From Ascidia mentula (lineage: Eukaryota; Chordata; Ascidiacea; Phlebobranchia; Ascidiidae): a stretch of DNA of 64,000 bases. Below the pieces are notes generated by a model. It ran no database searches. It was not told the DNA's origin and saw nothing but the letters and a program-made list of their open reading frames with translations. The position numbers and the translations under genes were made by a program. Positions 7,576 to 22,976 of this stretch are shown here, in pieces. The stretch lies in NCBI GenBank assembly GCA_947561715.1, contig OX387204.1, forward strand, positions 15,629,001 through 15,693,000, in the 5' to 3' direction. How positions within the stretch are numbered: position 1 is the stretch's first letter; each line of letters begins with the position of its first letter.

Positions 7576-7720
7576 CTGGTTGCACCCGATTTGGTACCGA
7601 ATAATTGACAGCGACTGTGTAGTCACCACAAAGTGCTTACTTGGCTAGTTAGAGGTCAAGATCATTCCAAAGCTGCACTGATGAGACCTGTTAGGTCGAA
7701 CTATAGTCTACAGCTCACTA
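7576..7720 (+). repeat. Hammerhead-bearing repeat, copy 1
   Basis: About 145 bp that clearly align with 8261..8430: both share GGTTGCACC, TTTGGT, then TAGTCACCACAAAGTG, TTGGC, GGTCA and the block AGCTGCACTGATGAGACC. The two are direct repeats about 690 bp apart. The shared part ends soon after the ribozyme motif. No protein is encoded. It could be a short non-autonomous retroelement of the kind that carries self-cleaving ribozymes. Confidence 0.75.
7671..7715 (+). ncRNA. Hammerhead ribozyme motif (type I), slightly degenerate
   Basis: Reading 5' to 3': helix I strand AGCTGCA (7671-7677), core CTGATGA (7678-7684), helix II GACCT / AGGTC closing a short loop (7685-7697), then GAA followed directly by C where GAAA-C is expected, a TATA loop, cleavage triplet GTC (7706-7708), and helix I return strand TACAGCT, which pairs at 6 of 7 positions. 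The layout matches a type I hammerhead with a very short helix III. One A of the conserved GAAA is missing, so this copy is probably weak or inactive. Confidence 0.65.
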
Positions 7721-8260
7721 TAAAATAGCATGCAATATCTGCTCATCAAACTAGCTAACACCCCACTCATTTTTACTGATGTTCCGCAGAAAAAAATAAC
7801 CAAAATGATAATGTTTTGGCCTTTTTATATTGCTTGTCTCGGTGGTGTTATGGGAATTCTTTGTAGTTTGCCAATTTACGCCGCGCAAATAACACTCAAA
7901 AGAACGCGTTATCTTTTGATTACAGTATAATTGCACAAACCTTCTTATCTATTGCGTTTAGGCATCCATAGCTGATGCTACACAAGCTTTAGCGATGTTA
8001 TCAGAACCCACGTTATCTTGCATGTTCATCAAGCTCCTATACCGCATCATACAATTGCCTGCTGACTAATGGAAGCCACTTATGTGGTGACAAACAAATT
8101 GCCTTTTCCATCTGTGGGTGTGTGAGTTCAATTTTGGAAAGAGTTCGTTCGGAGAAGTGTTGTTGGGATTGTTCGGGTGCGATATTGGGCGCGGTTAAAC
8201 ATATATGCACTATTGGTTGAGCTTGCTTGGCTATAGTGTTTCCACCTTGTTTTCTCCGTT
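7721..8260. other. Spacer between hammerhead repeats
   Basis: No gene or repeat recognised. The spacing of roughly 690 bp between the two ribozyme cores is short enough for both to sit in one transcript, but nothing in the spacer shows an internal promoter or open frame of note. Confidence 0.4.
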
Positions 8261-8430
8261 TTGGTTGCACCTAGTTTGGTGCCCAACGGATGACGGTGAT
8301 TGCATAGTCACCACAAAGTGGAAGTCTTTGCTTGGCCGTTTGGTCAGCAAAGTCGTCTTATAGTCACACCAGCTGCACTGATGAGACCTTTTAGGTCGAA
8401 ACAGTTGCCATCTATATGCAGCTTATACAC
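8261..8430 (+). repeat. Hammerhead-bearing repeat, copy 2
   Basis: About 170 bp, the better preserved of the two direct copies (see 7576..7720). It carries extra bases around 8325-8365 (TTGGCCGTTTGGTCAGC) relative to copy 1 and ends with a complete hammerhead motif. No flanking target duplication is evident by eye. Confidence 0.75.
8371..8423 (+). ncRNA. Hammerhead ribozyme (type I), near-intact
   Basis: Helix I strand AGCTGCA (8371-8377); core CTGATGA (8378-8384); helix II GACCT / AGGTC (8385-8389 with 8393-8397), five perfect pairs with a TTT loop; GAA (8398-8400); helix III ACAG (8401-8404) against CTAT (8412-8415), three of four pairs around a seven-base loop; cleavage position after A8416; helix I return strand TGCAGCT (8417-8423), seven perfect pairs. 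All invariant core bases are present. The helix III mismatch is repaired in the partial copy near 17.2 kb, where the same strand reads CTGT followed by C. Hammerheads cleave their own RNA backbone and are known in several animal retroelements. Confidence 0.8.
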
Positions 8431-11253
8431 AATTGCTTATATATGCACATGTTGCTTTAGTTCTAGTGATTCCCAAACTTTCGCGTTGATCGATAATTTA
8501 GTATGGTGATTTCGTACCACTTTTATTCGAAAAAGGATAAACCAAGCGAAATTGAAAGAAAGGCCAGGGTTGAAAGAAACTTATATATCAAAAATATGAA
8601 CAAGACAGTTTTATTATTTAATATTCCCGATGTACTATTGTTGAACTTGTTGCGTCACCAACGTGTGAAACGCGAACAAGTGAATATGAAACAATAATTC
8701 ACAGTACGTAATCTGTATCACAAATTCTACCTAACCTTTAAAGACCACAAACACCCACTCATTGTTGAGTATTTCTATGGCGATCGCAAGTTAAAAGTTT
8801 TTTTTTAGAAAGGGGGAAACTATTCATGATAATCAAACGTTACACATGTCGGTGAACTTGCTTCACAATCTCTTAACTTCCAAAATGCTTCTACTCCTTA
8901 CTATTTTAAATGTAGCTTCTCTTACGCAACATCTTGTCAAAACAATTCGCATTAACAGCGTTTGCAATTAAACTGACGCTGAAGAGTCCATTTAACTTTT
9001 CAATCAAACGTGCTTAAAAGCTTCCTCTAAATGGCTGTCGGCGTTTTACCGAAACAGCAAAGCAAAAAATTATCTTTCTCAGTAGGGATTTTGAGAATTT
9101 CAATTACCCGGCAGTTTCACCCTAGTAGTGGAATGCGTTATCTCAGTGTTTAAGTCAAGCTGCGGGCAGCGAATTCGCTTTCTGATTGTACAGAAAATGT
9201 ATGGTTAAAAAGAGATCACTGCGTGTAATTCGATTTACTGTGAACAAAATAATATAGGCGTGTGTCTGGTATTAAATAGACTTTCCTTGAAGAGTTTGGT
9301 GTAAATCCGAAATTAATTGATACACAGTGAATATTTAATGAGACTGCATAGTCTTCTTATGGCTCTATGTATTTGCTCTTCAATAATTAAACAAGGCCCC
9401 CAAGAGCTTTGTTTCCTTTTGCAATTCTGAAACGGATGCATTTCAATACAATCCCGTATTTTTTCTTGGCTCAAGTTGTTTATGCCCAAAAATATTTTCG
9501 CCATTTTGCCTGAAGTCTATAACTGCCGAAATATTGTAATCTTTTCACACAAATCCGAGCTTCTAAAACTTACTGGAACGACGCTTATCTTGTCATGTAA
9601 CTCGACGCTCTGCATTCCCCAGCGTTCATGCCGAAACTTTGTGTTCGAATATCGACCAAAGCGGCGTTTAAATAAATCTAATTCGGCGCCAATTGAATTG
9701 GCATTGAGCGCGCGCACGCCCAACTCTAGAATGGAAATTAATTGCGCCCGAAGCGCCCGAAAACTTTATTAAATCCCTCTTTGCTGTCCCCACAATAAAA
9801 AAAAACTAGGGATAAAAATCAGGCCGCCGTGTAAATTGGGCGCCCCGACTCCTCTACTCATCCAGACAACCTCTCAAGCCTTTGTTTGGCGGGAATCAAT
9901 TGCTCGGAACGGAGAAATTACATGGCGTAATCCCTAATCTTAGAAGATATATTGTGATGATCGCGTTAAGTTCGTTGTTTTGCGCAAGAAAATCTGTCGT
10001 TTTTGGATGTTGAGTTGAGATGGGTTTGGAACGAGAAAATTTCCCTTTGCCAAGTTCGCGTCGAATTTATGCTGTAGAGTTACTGTAACGCCCGGAAATT
10101 TTGCCATAAGTTTCAAAATGCTGCAATTTTTTATTAGTAATGTGTATTTTTATGTAATTACTCATAAAAACAAGATGTTGTACGAAAAAAGGTTAAATTC
10201 GTGACAAGTTTTGTTTTGTGCTGGGGGATCCCAAAAAGGAGTAATTTTTTAAAAAAATGTATTTTTTTGTTTAATTTTTTGAAATTCAACAAGATTTTTT
10301 ACACAAAAAATGCCGTGAATGCGATCAAACAAATGTCGTCTTCGGTCAGACGAACCGATAAGATAATCCTCGTCTTATCAATCGATCCTCCACTTTGATT
10401 ACAATCAACGAAGCCACGGATGAATTGTAATGTCTACAAGCACGCGCTTTTAAAGCAACATCAATAGAATTAAAGTTGATTTTTTTAAATAATCCACGGT
10501 CGCCCTTTCCCTGATACAAATCCAACCACTCGGTGGCGTGTTTTTTTTCTGTGTCAGTGTTATTTATGCAGGCATTCTTTTATCAAAACCCGATTTTTCA
10601 ATGTCACTAAAGGTTATTATCTTTGCTCTTTCCCAGAGAGACGCTTCGGTTTTTATGCTTACCGACTTAGTGAATGTTTGTGTTGCAAGTTCCATGTACA
10701 TTACTAAGCATAACAGTCACTAAAAGCCGATTACCATCCCTTTCCGTGCTGCTTTAATGAATGTGTTGACAAATCACCCCCAAACGCAAATGCTAAGTCA
10801 GATTAAACAATCACCGCTTATTACGTCACCATTGACACGTCATTCCAAAAAAAACTCACCGCCGCCTGGATTCTGTTGCCTTCATTGTGACGCAACAATG
10901 AATAATTTATTTCGGAGGAAATTGTTTGAAACTCGGCAGTCGCAATTGTTCTGTGGCGAAAACGCCCCTTGTGGTGATTTTTTTTATTCACGCAAAAATA
11001 TTTAAATTTTCACAATCGTTGCGCACGTTAATGTTTTACGTCTGGCTTTTCATGCAACTTTGACAAAAGAAAACTTTGATTTTACTTTTAATGAGGAATT
11101 GTTTTAACAAATGGAGTGTAGGCTGCGTTACCTTTTATCTTCCCAACACTCTTGATAAAATCGTAGTGAAGCTGTGAATGAAGTTGCTTGTCAGTTTTCA
11201 ACACAGCCTTAACCATTTCTATACGACACTTACCAGCGCCACCTTGTGTACAG
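8431..11253. other. No gene recognised, upstream of the SND1 exons
   Basis: AT-rich with short unsupported open frames. I looked in particular for the missing staphylococcal-nuclease exons of SND1 on both strands and found none. A minus-strand open frame at 11088-11327 overlaps the first SND1 exon and has a possible donor near 11230, but no recognisable product. Confidence 0.4.
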
Positions 11254-17409: not shown

Positions 17410-19414
17410 TCACACATTTTGGCATTGTTCCCTTAGATTATACAGTTCTTCCTCATAACCATCGTGATCACCAACAATAGCAAGAATTTGTCTCAATGTT
17501 ACTATTTTGCCTGGAATATCAGAAATAAAGCCTTGGCATTTTCTAATAGATTCCAGACAATCTAATTCCCGAATGCATGCTTCCTGTTCATCCACATTGT
17601 CCAAATTTCGTATCTTGTTCATCATCTTTTGCATAAAAGGTATCACGTGCTTTTGTACGACTCTTTCTCTTCTTTGCTGTGTCAAGCTGTCAAGTTGCGT
17701 TTCGTTAATTAGTTTTTCAGCAACGTTTTTTAGTTCCTCAACGCACCCTGTTATTCCCAATGCAGCTTTATCCCAAACATATCCTCTTGCAAACTGCTCG
17801 AACGCCATTTCGTAAAACATCATAGCTTCCCAATACTTTTGTGCTTTAAAATATTCGTCAGCCTTGCTTCTTAAAACATCCTCTTTTGGACTTTGGAGTG
17901 AAACCATATATTCCATTTCCACATGTTCGGCAGCCTTATAGTTACCGATTTCCATGAGTCTAAAATACTTGGATATCAGTTCGTGTTTTGCAGCTTTTTT
18001 ATCTGCAACAAATACAATAAAATAAAAGAACGTCAAACCGAAGATTAAAGCCACTTATATGAGTTACCCGCTTGCGAAATTGACAGTTCCATTTGCATTT
18101 CACTTTCTGCGTTAGCGCCAGAGGACGATTGGACTCGTGTGACGTCGTGCCCGGATTCGCTTTCTGTAATTTTTAAAGTTAGCATGATGGATTTCCTTCA
18201 ACAATTGTGTGGTGTAGGTTTGCTTTTACCTTTGAACTTTCTGTCCCTCGTAGAAAATTGATGAAGTGGAACACGTGGATTGAAGTTGTCCAGTGGAGGA
18301 TTGTTAATCTGCTTCACTCGTTTTGCTTCCTCTAATTGATGTGTAATTTCTTCAGAATTTTGCTGATGAAAAAGATTCTTCAATCTCGTGTAAACTTCCG
18401 ACATCGTGGGTCTCGAAGCAGGATCTTCATCCCAACATTTTTTCATGATTGACTCGAGCTCTTCCACTATTACTTTGTCATTGTCGCTTAGAGTTTGCTT
18501 CAGCTCATCCAATGTACTACAATCTGGCCTTAGTCCTCCAATTATCGCGTCCGGTGACGTATTTAGGGGAAAGGGTAGTTTACGGAAGATAACCGCATAC
18601 GTCATGATACCAAAAGCGTACACGTCAAGTTTTTGGTTTGATTTCATATCAAGCCGTTGCAGTTTTTCCGGTGCACTGTACATAGGCGTGTATTGTGGTC
18701 TTTTCTTTTTGGTTTTTGCTGAAGAATCCACAGTGGTCGATCCAGTTAAAGTTGCCAGTTCAGAAGCTCCAAAATCACAAAGTTTGCACATGAAATTAAT
18801 ATCGAGCAGCACATTTTCGAGTTTGATGTCATTGTGAACCAATCGTTTATCACCAGGTAAACTGTGACACTCGGCCAAAGCCCTTGAGGTCATTGTAAGA
18901 AGCCACAGACGGAGTGGAACTCCCAGTGGAATTAAATCATCCAAAATGAGTTGTTTTAGATTTCCACCTTGGCAGAATTCCATCACAATTCCAAATGCAA
19001 AATCCCATTCCACCCATCCAATTACACGCACTATGTTCGGATTGTTTATTTTCTGCAAATAACCCATTTCTTCTTTCAATCTACGACAAATACAAAATAT
19101 ATTGGGTATGATGGAAAATCTACCACTGTTAAATGTAAACAAATAATTACATTCTTTTAATCAGCGTTTTGTCTTGAAGTCCTCCAGTAACGTTGGTGAT
19201 TTTAATGGCCACGAATTCCTTTGTTGTTCTGTGAAAACCGATCACAACATCACATGAACCACCAGATCCTGCTTCATATTTATCTGGGTCACATATGATG
19301 TCACGGGATGAGATTTCATCAAACTGCAAGTACATCAAGAACAAAAATCTTTGCAAGCCATTACAGCACACAGAATAAAATAACGAATAAATTTACATTT
19401 CCCATTGGTTCCAT
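17410..19414 (-). CDS. Protein kinase with helical C-terminal tail, paralogue 1
   Basis: Five exons: 19397..19414 (six codons), 19151..19323, 18230..19080, 18068..18163 and 17410..18002; phases agree throughout and give 576 aa. The kinase domain (about 20-290) has a Gly-rich loop GSGGSC, the VAIK lysine (K47), a catalytic HND in place of HRD (H146-N147-D148, so the catalytic Asp is kept), DFG (166-168) and an APEKL motif, so it should be active. The pattern (RVIGWVEWDFA, MEFCQGGNL) suggests the TKL group, near RIPK-like kinases. A linker rich in Ser and Glu follows, then about 200 helical residues (DEYFKAQKYWEAMMFYEMAFE) that look TPR-like. I do not recognise this tail joined to a kinase elsewhere. 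The neighbour at 20938..22976 is a clear tandem duplicate in the same orientation. The role is unknown; signalling is inferred only from the kinase fold. Confidence 0.85.
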
Positions 19415-19612
19415 GTTATATGTCCTAGAGAACGTTCACAAAACATCAACAAAACGATTGAATAAAACAACTAACTATCTTAAGCAGGACCCTTGAAGCT
19501 AAGATAGAATATCTTTCAATGTGACTGGTACTGTTTGAAAGAGGGTTGCAAATACTGACTTTGTAGCCAATACTGCTCTCCCACACTCCTTGCAACAGCT
19601 CGCCACTTTATT

Positions 19613-19685
19613 CTTTATTCATCCGCGAGACACACACCGACATGCATCACTAGACACACGGACACACATGACTACACACGCATAA
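19613..19685. repeat. Imperfect CA-rich microsatellite
   Basis: A degenerate ACACAC/GACACAC tract (ACACACACCGACATGC, ACACACGGACACACATG, CTACACACGCATA) between the two kinase genes. No function is suggested. Confidence 0.6.
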
Positions 19686-20002
19686 TGACGCACAAAATCG
19701 CTACAGCAGCTTGTTTTGTTGATACGCCTGGTTGCGTATTTACATTTTCGCTAAACTCACAATATGTGTGTTTGAAGTATAGTCTACAAAGGTGTACCAG
19801 TCCTACACAACACATTTCTAGTTTTGTTTGCGACTGCTTCAAAATCTTGGTTGCCAGAATTCGATAAAAGCTTACATTCGAGTCAAAATGAATGTGAGTG
19901 CCAGGAGGCGACAACGACGACCCCCTTTGAATTTTCCCACGTGTTTCATTTTCGGACTTTTTAAAGCCAACCCCAATATATCCAGAAAAGCTACGAGGGG
20001 TC

Positions 20003-20084
20003 GAAGATTGAGACTTTAACTGCAGCTCTACTGCCGCATGCGGACAATTGGGCACAACTCAGATTGCTAACGGAGCGGGTAAAC
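20003..20084 (+). pseudogene. Degenerate copy of SND1 exon 12101..12265 (3' part)
   Basis: The stretch aligns with the last third of the second SND1 exon in this window and its donor: CTGCAGCTCTACTGCCGCAT here against CTGCATCTCTACTGCCAGCA there, then GGACAAT / GGACAAA, GGGCACAACTC / GGAGCACAACTC and GGAGCGGGTAAA / CCGAGCAGGTAAA. By eye about three quarters of the bases agree. One base is lost relative to SND1, so the peptide is split between frames (LQLYC in one, QLRLLTERV in the other). No neighbouring SND1 exon accompanies it, so it is a fossil fragment of a wider duplication. Confidence 0.7.
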
Positions 20085-20555
20085 GTCAAGGATTCTGTAA
20101 ACCTAAATTACGATGATATTCTGTTAAATTGTTCAGTGATTAAATATAAGGGAAACAATACTGACTAGTTGACAGAAGGGGCTAAAAACCATTTGCTTTT
20201 AATAGCATAGTTACGGAACGTCGGTAAATAAAAGTATACGTTTAATTGAGTAAGAAAAACAGATGAATTGAAATACAATATGCCTGGTAGCAACAGCAAC
20301 ACAATCCTAGGAATTTGTATGAAAAAATGTAGGACTATTAGTGTACTGATAAAAAAAAACATTACATTTAGCGAAAGCAAGATATATGTCGTCCTTTTTT
20401 CTTAACTGTCGCCCTTTTTCAAGCGCAGAGTCCTCACAAAATCGCGGGGCTCAGTTATCGGCCATATGTGCTAAGGGCGGCCCTGGTCCGGATAGCTATG
20501 AAATTTTGAGGGAACTTTGATTTGATATACTGCTATTTTTGTTGCCAGACATACT

Positions 20556-20814
20556 AATTAATCGGAATTGCTCTTCTGGCACTCAGTTTCTAAAGTGTTT
20601 ATTTGAAACCAACCTTTCGTCTGCCATCCGGCGAGACTTCTATTCCTTTTTCCTTGTGTTTTTCTTGCGTTTTTCCTGCGTTTTTAGTGTTTTATGCGCG
20701 TGATGCTTCACTGTTGACATAACCCTGAAGAAGTCTCGCCGGATGGCAGACGAAACGTTGGTTTCAAATAAACACTTTAGAAACAAAGTGCCAGGAGAGC
20801 AATTCCGATTAATT
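20556..20814. repeat. Long fold-back element with hammerhead-like arms
   Basis: Two 85-base inverted arms (20556..20640 and 20730..20814) differ at only about four positions, separated by an 89-base pyrimidine-rich loop. The right arm holds CTGAAGA (20725-20731, just entering the arm), GTCT paired with AGAC, and GAAACGTT (20752-20759); the left arm holds the reverse complement. Tail sequence GTGCCAGGAGAGC parallels the tails of the elements at 13.9 and 38.1 kb. A transcript would form a long near-perfect duplex. Confidence 0.85.
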
Positions 20815-20937
20815 TGATTTGATAGTTTGGCGGGTATTATCGCTTGCTGTCAAAATACTAACGTTTGTTGAACATTGTGTCGCCAGTGCTAAAACCAAAA
20901 CAAATGGATGCAATCTGGATCTGTTGAAATTGAAAAC

Positions 20938-22976
20938 TTATTGGTAGTTTCTCCACCAAAACGCTTCCTTCGGGCCGTTATGGGCATTTGCAATTTGCAA
21001 AGCCTGCTGTATTGTTTGTTTTTGTGCTGAAATGTCCCCCAGGAAGTTGTAGCATCGTTGAATCGATTCCAAACAGTTGATTTCACATTCACAAGCGATG
21101 TCGTCATCCACGTGGTCCAACTTCCGCATCTTTTCCCTCATCCTGTGCATGAATGGGATCACGTGATGTCGAACCACTGATCGTACCCTTCTTTGTTCCA
21201 AATTAATTTCCACCAATTCTTCATTCCATTGCAGGAGTTTTTCCGAAACGTCTTTCAATCTCCTCACGCAGGTGATCATGCCCTGCGCAGCTTCATCGAA
21301 TAAAAAGCGCCTCGTAAACATCTCGAACGCCATTTCGTAAAACATCATGGCTTCCCAATACTTTTGTGTTTTAAAATATTCGTCGCCGGCGTTGAGCAAA
21401 GTGGAATCGTGTGGGGCTGATGGACCTTCGAATGAACGCAAATACTCGAGTTTCACATGTTGCGCAGCATCGAAGTTTGCTATCTCCATTAGTTTGCAAT
21501 ACCTCGATATAAGATGTTGTTCATTTGTTGCTGGGTCTAAAGTGAATAGCGTAAAAATATCTTTTAATGTTTCTAAATAACAAGGATCACCTGGTTGTGG
21601 TAGCAGCAATTCCACTTGTGCTGCGCTATCAGTGGTGGCGCTAGGGGGGGGGGGGGACGGATGTTGTGTGACGTCATCGACGGGGGCAGTTTCTGTAATT
21701 AGTAACGTGAAAATGATGGAAACTATATTGCTCGGTTATATGTTGCCAGTATTTTATTTTTCTTGAGCTACCTTTGAACTTTCTGTCCCTCGTAGAAAAT
21801 TGATGAAGTGGCACACGGGGGTTGAAGTTGTACAGTGGAGGATTGTTAATCTGCTTCACTCGTTTTGCATCTTTCAACTGACGTAAAATTTCATCTGAGT
21901 TTTGCTGATGAAAAAGATTCTGCAACCTCGTGTTAACTTCCGACATCGTGGGTCTCGCGGAAGGATCTTCATCCCAACACTCTTTCATGATTGACTCGAG
22001 CTTTTCCACTATTACTTTGTCATTGTCGCTGAGAGTTTGCTTCAGCTCATCCAATGTACTACAGTCTGGCCTTACACCTCCAATTATAGCGTCCGGTGAC
22101 GTATTTGGTAAATACGGGGGCGTGCGGAGTATAGTGGCGTACGTCATAATACCAAAAGCGTACACGTCAAGTTTTTCAGTTGGATAACTGATAAGACGTC
22201 GAAGTTTTTCTGGTGCCATATACGCAAGTGCGCAATCCTCTCTGTTTCTCGATGAGGAAACCTTAGCAATTGAACCACTTATAGTTGCCAGTTCAGCGCT
22301 TCCAAAATCGCACAGCTTACAAACTAAACTGTGAGTGAGCAGCACATTTTCGAGTTTGATATCATTGTGAGCCAATCGTTTACCACCAGGTAAAGTGTGA
22401 CACTCGGCCAAAGCCCTTGAGATCATTGTGAGAAGCCACAGACGGAGTGGAACTCCCAGTGGAATTGAATGATCCATAATAAGTTGTCTTAGATTTCCAC
22501 CTTGGCAGAATTCCATCACAATTCCAAATGCAAAGTCCCATTCCACCCATCCAATTACACGGACTATGTTTGCTTGGTCAATCATTTGCAAATAGCCCAT
22601 TTCTTCTTTTAGTCTGCAGCAAATACAACCACCACATTTTTCAATCACGAAAATCAACTACAATCTAATTTAAAACAAATGCTTACATTCTTTTCATTAA
22701 CGTTTTGTCCTGAAGACCTCCAGTGACATTGGTGACTTTAACGGCCACGAATTCCTTTGTTGTTCTGTGAAAACCGATCACAACATCACATGAACCACCA
22801 GATCCTGCTTCATATTTATCTGGGTCACAGATGATGTCACGGGGTGAGATCTCAACGACCTGCGATCATCAACCAAAAACTAATGTATGTTACGGATATT
22901 CCGTGCGGAAATTTTATGCAAGACTTTTTAACGCAAGAAACTTAATTCGCAAACTTACATTGTTTTCTAAATCCAT
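20938..22976 (-). CDS. Protein kinase with helical C-terminal tail, paralogue 2
   Basis: Five exons mirror paralogue 1: 22959..22976 (MDLENN), 22687..22859, 21772..22613, 21591..21692 and 20938..21536, giving 577 aa. Exon 2 is 173 nt in both genes, and introns sit at the same phases. Kinase landmarks are the same: GSGGSC loop, VAVK lysine (47), H146-N147-D148, DFG (166-168), APEKL. The tail repeats the TPR-like helices (DEYFKTQKYWEAMMFYEMAFE). Two oddities: exon 4 carries a run of 13 C on the coding strand, read as a short poly-proline; and the intron 21537..21590 is only 54 nt and stays open if retained, adding 18 residues. Splicing is preferred because it restores the exon border of paralogue 1. 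The function is unknown. Confidence 0.85.

What the first reader, a model, noticed from the sequence alone, without database searches (positions are those of the whole stretch)
8371..8423. Near-perfect type I hammerhead ribozyme in an unannotated repeat
All invariant core bases (CTGATGA, GAA plus A) are present with a 7-bp helix I, a 5-bp helix II and a 4-bp helix III with a single mismatch, in the correct order for a type I hammerhead. Chance assembly of this arrangement is very unlikely, and a second copy of the surrounding repeat conserves it. The repeat encodes no protein, so the ribozyme may be the main working part of the element.
Basis: partly seen in the sequence, partly recalled or inferred. 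Interest (0 to 1): 0.8.

Follow-up and report, generated by a model that had tools for sequence, protein, structure and literature searches.

The report
Ribozyme-bearing mobile repeat in sea squirt
The window holds one worn copy of a small non-coding mobile element whose ribozyme is present over a thousand times in this sea-squirt genome, and the way its copies are inserted carries the fingerprint of Penelope-type retrotransposons, the suspected but unproven movers of such ribozyme repeats.

Summary
The hammerhead is real. At 8371-8423 the sequence has the type I core; sibling copies show the intact form, with a perfect 4-bp helix III and C at the cleavage site. An exact core pattern occurs 1474 times in this genome and never when read backwards. 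The window copy is a decayed, 5'-truncated, one-armed copy of a 285-nt non-coding element flanked by a 10-bp target duplication. The mitochondrial code makes the host an ascidian. The element fits the metazoan retrozymes. New here is the insertion anatomy. Many fetched insertions are two head-to-head arms, with duplications of 12-15 bp in 44 of 51. Outer ends fall at two sites, about 16 and 45 nt after the cleavage site, and 53 of 53 classifiable two-armed main-family insertions use one of each (55 examined). Penelope-like elements of the same genome, with GIY-YIG ends and minimal hammerheads, do so in 9 of 9 pairs fetched. Best reading: Penelope machinery copies retrozyme RNA from both nicked target strands, one start site per strand, and joins the two cDNAs by microhomology. 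Cleavage, circularity and the enzyme were not tested.

The parts
8211..8438 (+). 5'-truncated, one-armed copy of the 285-nt retrozyme; the 3' end is either the short end plus a few nt or a tailed end with an internal deletion
   Evidence: 8207-8440 aligns to unit coordinates 76 to 24 at 93%; bounded by the target duplication
8201..8210 (.). left target-site duplication ATATATGCAC
   Evidence: identical 10-mer at 8439-8448
8439..8448 (.). right target-site duplication ATATATGCAC
8371..8423 (+). type I hammerhead ribozyme (decayed copy)
   Evidence: sibling copies
8371..8377 (+). helix I, 5' strand AGCTGCA
8378..8384 (+). core CTGATGA
8385..8397 (+). helix II hairpin GACCT-TTT-AGGTC
8398..8400 (+). 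core GAA
8401..8415 (+). helix III hairpin ACAG-TTGCCAT-CTAT with C8402/A8414 mismatch (CTGT in siblings)
8416..8416 (+). nucleotide 17 (A here, C in most siblings seen); expected cleavage between 8416 and 8417
   Evidence: cleavage inferred, not tested
8417..8423 (+). helix I, 3' strand TGCAGCT
8423..8434 (+). short-end motif TTATACACAATT (region of the nearer start site)
7577..7720 (+). older, diverged copy of the same repeat with a degraded hammerhead
   Evidence: 76% over 59 nt and 97% over 30 nt to the 8262-8400 copy; 70% to the unit over 7578-7700

Best explanation
The feature belongs to a non-autonomous metazoan retrozyme family of an ascidian tunicate, with a 285-nt unit, no coding capacity and one type I hammerhead per unit. 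Inferred: multimeric transcripts cut themselves at the hammerhead and the monomers are ligated into circles. Supported by insertion anatomy: a Penelope-like enzyme nicks both strands of the target about 12 nt apart, each free 3' end primes reverse transcription of the retrozyme RNA, one strand starting about 16 nt and the other about 45 nt downstream of the ribozyme cleavage site, and the two cDNAs are joined head to head through a few bases of microhomology. The strict use of one site per strand points to a single coordinated complex, for example a protein dimer on one RNA. Arms that contain ribozyme sequence or run several units show that the template was continuous across the cleavage site, as a circle or an uncleaved multimer. 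The window copy is one 5'-truncated, decayed product of this process.
For: 1474 and 1613 exact hammerhead pattern matches, 0 in reversed controls. Tandem 285-nt units with one hammerhead each. Neighbouring hammerheads within 1.5 kb among the 100 listed of 1474 places: (-,+) 12, (+,+) 6, (+,-) 0; GIY-YIG places within 6 kb among the 150 scored of 382: (-,+) 22, same strand 12, (+,-) 0. Two-armed main-family insertions with one short and one long end: 51 of 51 in the script after duplication bases are removed (49 of 51 before) plus L006 and L100 by eye; L108 and L113 of the 55 were not classifiable. Penelope-like pairs 9 of 9 fetched, out of 22 (-,+) pairs; second retrozyme subfamily 2 of 2 by eye. 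Duplications of 12 bp or more in 44 of 51, against 0 of 2550 cross-pairings. Junction overlap of 2 nt or more in 28 of 51, where a simple random-join formula gives 16%; inner ends within 10 nt of each other in only 5 of 51. Arms of one insertion are more alike than the between-insertion median in 26 of 32, equal in 1, lower in 5. The published Anolis Penelope protein PAc cleaves and extends both strands and starts at two adjacent sites (PMC11167929).
Against: No RNA data: self-cleavage, circles and expression are untested. No particular Penelope family was linked to the retrozyme: their terminal repeats look unrelated by eye. The PAc study saw no difference in start site between strands (pooled products), no reads ending at the cleavage site, and no need for hammerhead activity in vitro. 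RNAfold prefers an alternative fold slightly for the commonest copy (-17.4 versus -16.0) and clearly for the window copy (-16.3 versus -10.0). Arm identity is below the between-insertion median in L004, L008, L012, L034 and L109. L108 starts inside the hammerhead; L113 has mixed arms. In 7 of 51 the duplication is shorter than 12 bp and some of these (for example L008, L031) are within the range of cross-pairings; 13 of 51 junctions show a gap instead of overlap. The 216-aa ORF core (L139) has no Pfam match; calling it Penelope reverse transcriptase rests on GIY-YIG ends, architecture and motifs recalled from memory.
Confidence: 0.8

Rival explanations
1. A retrozyme moved by an ordinary LINE through single-strand target-primed reverse transcription, with inverted arms made by LINE-type twin priming.
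For: RVT_1 reverse transcriptases, not sorted into LINE and other types here, are plentiful in this genome (150 of 1254 candidates scored); LINE twin priming can invert the 5' part (recalled).
Against: Both outer ends are 3' ends at fixed internal sites, and the ends printed show no poly(A); the two-site rule is the same as in GIY-YIG elements of this genome, and the tail is called unique to Penelope-like elements in the abstract of PMC11167929.
Confidence: 0.06
2. The head-to-head arms come from self-priming (snap-back) of one cDNA, as proposed for Adineta Penelope elements from an antisense template (PMC3846280).
For: Head-to-head inverted repeats are known in Penelope elements and were explained this way, with palindromes at the inverted junction (passages).
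Against: Snap-back predicts near-palindromic centres and matching outer ends; inner coordinates differ by more than 10 nt in 46 of 51 and outer ends differ in 53 of 53 classifiable insertions.
Confidence: 0.08
3. The template is an uncleaved linear multimer transcribed from genomic arrays; circles play no part and the ribozyme is incidental to integration.
For: Arms run through the cleavage site, which an uncleaved multimer also allows; hammerhead mutants of PAc still inserted in vitro (PMC11167929).
Against: Between the main and TTAC subfamilies the hammerhead stretch is 91-98% alike over about 35-47 nt against 70-76% elsewhere, which suggests constraint, although most of these loci were found by a hammerhead pattern and are biased towards intact ones. 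Unit length is the same in both arms in 9 of 9 insertions with a listed whole unit in each arm, which fits a circle but does not exclude a homogeneous multimer.
Confidence: 0.25
4. A C/D-box snoRNA-derived repeat and not a ribozyme (UGAUGA core inside a terminal stem).
For: Weak Rfam hit to SNORD25, 15.2 bits against a cut-off of 39.
Against: Complete hammerhead core including GAA, helix III variants of several lengths that keep the outer pairing, C17 and tandem units.
Confidence: 0.01

Closest known systems
Metazoan non-LTR retrozymes (Cervera and de la Pena 2020, PMC7229834)
   Same: type I hammerhead, short tandem repeats of about 300 bp, GC below 50%, no protein, target duplications longer than 4 bp, co-existence with Penelope-like elements carrying minimal hammerheads
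   Different: unit sequence not compared with published ones; the head-to-head arms, fixed two-site ends and one-tail rule are not in the parts read (the word inverted has 0 occurrences in its main text); expression and circles untested here
Penelope-like elements with GIY-YIG endonuclease (Adineta, PMC3846280; Anolis PAc, PMC11167929)
   Same: head-to-head inverted copies, tail of about 30 nt on one arm, target duplications of about 10 bp, type I hammerhead (PAc)
   Different: the retrozyme has no ORF and carries a full helix III; in the passages read the tail is called optional, while here each classifiable two-armed insertion has exactly one
Type I hammerhead, Rfam RF00163
   Same: all core bases and all modelled pairs in an intact sibling
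   Different: 20.8 bits against the 34-bit gathering cut-off; helix III has a 7-nt loop; no internal loop in helix I was recognised by eye

Membership tests
Metazoan non-LTR retrozyme | type I hammerhead in each repeat | tested here: met
Metazoan non-LTR retrozyme | tandem repeats of about 150-450 bp | tested here: met
   285-nt units, arms up to 1680 nt
Metazoan non-LTR retrozyme | GC below 50% | tested here: met
   47.4% for one genomic unit
Metazoan non-LTR retrozyme | non-coding | tested here: met
   no ORF of 130 aa or more over the window copy; none of the ORFs of 180 aa or more listed for 60 loci overlaps the repeat by coordinates
Metazoan non-LTR retrozyme | target-site duplications longer than 4 bp | tested here: met
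   12-15 bp in 44 of 51, 6-10 bp in 7
Metazoan non-LTR retrozyme | no LTR, PBS or PPT | not tested
   no dedicated search was made
Metazoan non-LTR retrozyme | expressed as linear and circular RNA | not testable with these tools
   no RNA data
Rfam RF00163 model | score at or above gathering cut-off | tested here: not met
   0 hits in the window and in 8 loci; 20.8 of 34 bits for an intact copy; a genome search gave 0, but its 14 controls gave 0 too
Type I hammerhead (structural definition) | CUGAUGA, GAA and NUH core with three helices, open helix I | tested here: met
   intact siblings; the window copy has one helix III mismatch and A at position 17
Type I hammerhead (structural definition) | self-cleavage | not testable with these tools
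   needs an in vitro transcript
Penelope-type insertion | head-to-head arms with 3' ends outward | tested here: met
   (+,-) pairs 0, (-,+) pairs 12 and 22; one mixed case, L113, among mapped loci
Penelope-type insertion | tail between two start sites | tested here: met
   53 of 53 classifiable of 55 examined; Penelope-like elements of this genome 9 of 9 fetched
Autonomous Penelope-like element | ORF with reverse transcriptase and GIY-YIG | tested here: not met
   the 285-nt unit has no such ORF; the retrozyme is therefore not filed as a Penelope-like element

The most novel reading that the evidence does not exclude
Penelope-type integration is a coordinated two-strand reaction: one complex holds an RNA at two fixed start sites about 30 nt apart and each nicked target strand uses one of them, never the same one; retrozymes are parasites of this reaction, and a single circular retrozyme RNA templates both cDNAs.
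Probability: 0.5. Interest if true: 0.8.

Novelty: new member of a known kind. Interest (0 to 1): 0.6.

Why it matters
The element is a retrozyme family in an ascidian, but its insertions speak to two open points. The 2020 retrozyme paper calls Penelope-like elements a strong candidate for moving metazoan retrozymes on grounds of shared hammerheads, tandem copies and co-existence; here both kinds also share head-to-head geometry and a two-site end rule. The tail of Penelope elements is described as optional in the passages read; here it sits on exactly one arm of each classifiable two-armed insertion. That constrains how the enzyme works and can be checked in any genome with such elements.

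Tried and rejected
Chance hammerhead: rejected by reversed-pattern controls. Rfam confirmation: failed at gathering thresholds; the genome search with RF00163 was uninformative because its 14 controls were empty too. Long autonomous element around the repeat: the multi-kilobase similarity of some loci looks like segmental duplication of host genes such as kinases. Linking the retrozyme to one Penelope family: by eye, none of the 100 hammerhead places listed on C1 lies within 40 kb of a GIY-YIG place listed on that stretch, and tail sequences look unrelated; left open. Pfam on the core of the Penelope-like ORF: no match; PDB sequence search: no match. Species name: a text search for assembly size found nothing; only the ascidian mitochondrial code was established. 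Covariation statistics were not run.

Rows dropped before counts (one search lists every two-armed mapping). The script mapped 62 two-armed loci; 51 were counted. Repeats of a counted insertion: L015 and L063 (L012), L035 and L036 (L034), L057 (L002). Other subfamilies: L039, L059, L060, L069. L100 was added by eye, L108 is unclassifiable. L006 (second arm missed by the script) was added; L113 has mixed arms. That makes 55 examined: 53 classifiable, 2 not. L065 repeats L064 in the TTAC subfamily. Before duplication bases were removed, 49 of 51 read as discordant, L123 as undecided and L129 as two long ends; after removal 51 of 51. The prediction was written after the coordinates had been seen, which show some long end pieces but not both ends of each insertion, and after L099 and L100 had been fetched but not mapped; it was not fully blind.

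Full report
OBSERVATION. Helix I has 7 bp, helix II 5 bp, helix III 4 positions with one C-A mismatch, and A8416 sits at the cleavage position. The core plus helix II is found twice in the window and in none of 100 shuffles. Rfam gives no gathering-level hit in the window; with a relaxed threshold the region matches the type III hammerhead model at 21.7 bits, E 0.098.

GENOME CONTEXT. The window is part of a 195.8-Mb assembly in 79 contigs. Its mitochondrial COX1 puts glycine at the places where I recall glycine in this protein only if AGA and AGG are read by the ascidian code, table 13, of the six tables tried. The host is therefore taken as an ascidian tunicate; the species was not identified. 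Type I hammerheads have been counted in another ascidian, Didemnum vexillum, 9 loci (PMC8704543, passages).

COPIES. An exact core pattern matches 738 times forward and 736 times reverse, 0 in the reversed control; a pattern reaching the cleavage site matches 824 and 789 times, 0 in the control. A 201-nt query around the window copy had 2058 first-look candidates, of which 40 were scored; the long matches listed are 95-100% identical. Siblings read GAAACAGTGGCCATCTGTC-TGCAGCT, so the window copy's helix III mismatch and A17 are its own changes. The first places listed include several helix III lengths that keep the outer ACAG/CTGT pairing, single losses of a pair, and varied helix II loops. 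Between the main and TTAC subfamilies the hammerhead stretch is 91-98% alike over about 35-47 nt, other parts 70-76% or not alignable; most of these loci were found by a hammerhead pattern, so this contrast is biased upward. An intact sibling scores 20.8 bits on RF00163 with all pairs standard, below the 34-bit cut-off, which explains the empty Rfam results. By energy alone the hammerhead fold of the common copy is -16.0 against an alternative at -17.4, and that of the window copy -10.0 against -16.3; one TTAC copy folds into the hammerhead as its minimum.

UNIT AND ARMS. The unit is 285 nt (GC 47.4%), as in an array of six hammerheads on C1. Mapping fetched loci on the unit shows that many insertions consist of a left arm in reverse orientation and a right arm in forward orientation, so that both outer ends are 3' ends; others have one arm. 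In the 100 listed places neighbours within 1.5 kb are (-,+) 12, (+,+) 6, (+,-) 0.

TARGET DUPLICATIONS. The longest match between the two flanks is 12-15 bp in 44 of 51 two-armed insertions and 6-10 bp in 7; in 2550 cross-pairings of flanks it never reaches 12 (maximum 11). The 44 duplications average 80% A+T. The window copy has ATATATGCAC at 8201-8210 and 8439-8448.

ONE TAIL PER INSERTION. Outer ends fall 9-19 nt or 38-55 nt after the cleavage site once duplication bases are removed. In a first set of 22 insertions each had one of each kind. I then wrote down the prediction and scored a second set chosen by similarity to the unit or taken from the list, not by ends; some long end pieces were already visible. 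The script total is 27 short-long and 24 long-short, 0 equal, in 51 (49 of 51 before trimming); L006 and L100, read by eye, agree. Two further two-armed insertions, L108 (one end inside the hammerhead) and L113 (mixed arms), could not be classified. One search lists all two-armed mappings and those left out. Two insertions of the TTAC subfamily, by eye, also have one of each.

PENELOPE-LIKE ELEMENTS OF THE SAME GENOME. A GIY-YIG search had 382 candidates, 150 scored, in ORFs up to 953 aa, in tandem and head to head: (-,+) 22, same strand 12, (+,-) 0 within 6 kb. In the eight terminal regions read, hammerhead-like cores occur in front of the insertion end, for example CTGAAGAAGCC...GGCGAAACGTC, which look like the minimal hammerheads described for such elements (description in passages of PMC7761336). 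Nine of the 22 (-,+) pairs were fetched at both ends (seven of one family, two of another); each has one short and one long end differing by 30-40 nt. A 216-aa core piece of one ORF matches the other families at 31-50% but has no Pfam match; of two C-terminal pieces scanned, one passes the Pfam GIY-YIG cut-off and one, cut short, does not. Calling the core a Penelope reverse transcriptase rests on the GIY-YIG ends, the architecture, and motifs recalled from memory.

HOW IT WORKS. The published Anolis Penelope protein cuts and extends both target strands and starts at two adjacent internal sites, whose interval is the tail (PMC11167929, parts 1-2 and passages). The retrozyme insertions look like the in vivo result of such a reaction. 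If the two strands chose sites independently and equally, half the insertions would have equal ends; none was seen in 53, so the two starts are coordinated. The arms overlap by 2 nt or more in 28 of 51 (16% expected from a simple random-join formula) and by 1 nt or more in 36 of 51 (44% expected); 13 of 51 have a gap instead. Their inner coordinates differ by more than 10 nt in 46 of 51, against snap-back self-priming, which had been proposed for Adineta elements (PMC3846280, passages). In the 32 insertions with both arms of at least 80 nt, the two arms are more alike (median 98.8%) than arms of different insertions (96.9%): above the between-insertion median in 26, equal in L104, below in L004, L008, L012, L034 and L109. 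In the 9 insertions for which one search lists a whole unit in both arms, unit length is the same in both (284 in four, 285 in five; a further unit of L062 has a deletion). This fits one template species for both arms. Because both start sites lie downstream of the cleavage site, every arm that contains hammerhead sequence was copied from RNA that was continuous across it: a ligated circle or an uncleaved multimer. I favour circles by analogy with other metazoan retrozymes, whose circles were shown by northern blot and RT-PCR (PMC7229834, parts 1-3 of 6), but nothing here proves it.

WHAT IS KNOWN. The family fits the metazoan non-LTR retrozymes in the features that I could test. [quoted passage not shown] I met no description of head-to-head, single-tailed retrozyme insertions in the open-access library (searches; listings only, apart from the papers named). 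Two papers on Penelope hammerheads of 2014 and 2017 were not held, and older Penelope papers in subscription journals could not be read, so the one-tail rule for Penelope elements may be partly in print.

VERDICT. The thing itself is a new member of a known kind. The value lies in the insertion rule, which ties retrozymes to Penelope machinery and makes its mechanism testable.

Noticed in passing
window 17410-22657, minus strand: Two neighbouring protein-kinase-like genes of similar layout; related kinase genes on C1 sit in loci that resemble each other over kilobases and carry hammerhead repeats (L050, L053, L055, L059, L060).
   Followed up: no
L004, L009, L019, L029, L033, L037, L038: Inner ends of several arms gather at unit coordinates 237-241, the 5' edge of helix I, as if reverse transcription stops on leaving the ribozyme; some of these loci were chosen by a pattern that starts there, so this may be partly selection.
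   Followed up: no
L108: A two-armed insertion whose left end lies inside the hammerhead (about unit 267-274) while the right end is the long one.
   Followed up: partly
L073-L080: Several Penelope-like families with hammerhead-like cores and long open ORFs, in tandem and head to head, which suggests recent activity.
   Followed up: partly
L002:1633-1683: An intact type I hammerhead of this family falls below the RF00163 gathering score, so annotation at Rfam cut-offs is likely to miss the family.
   Followed up: yes
window 8423-8438: The 3' end of the window copy reads TTATACACAATTGCTT; it may be a long end that lost the middle of its tail by deletion.
   Followed up: no
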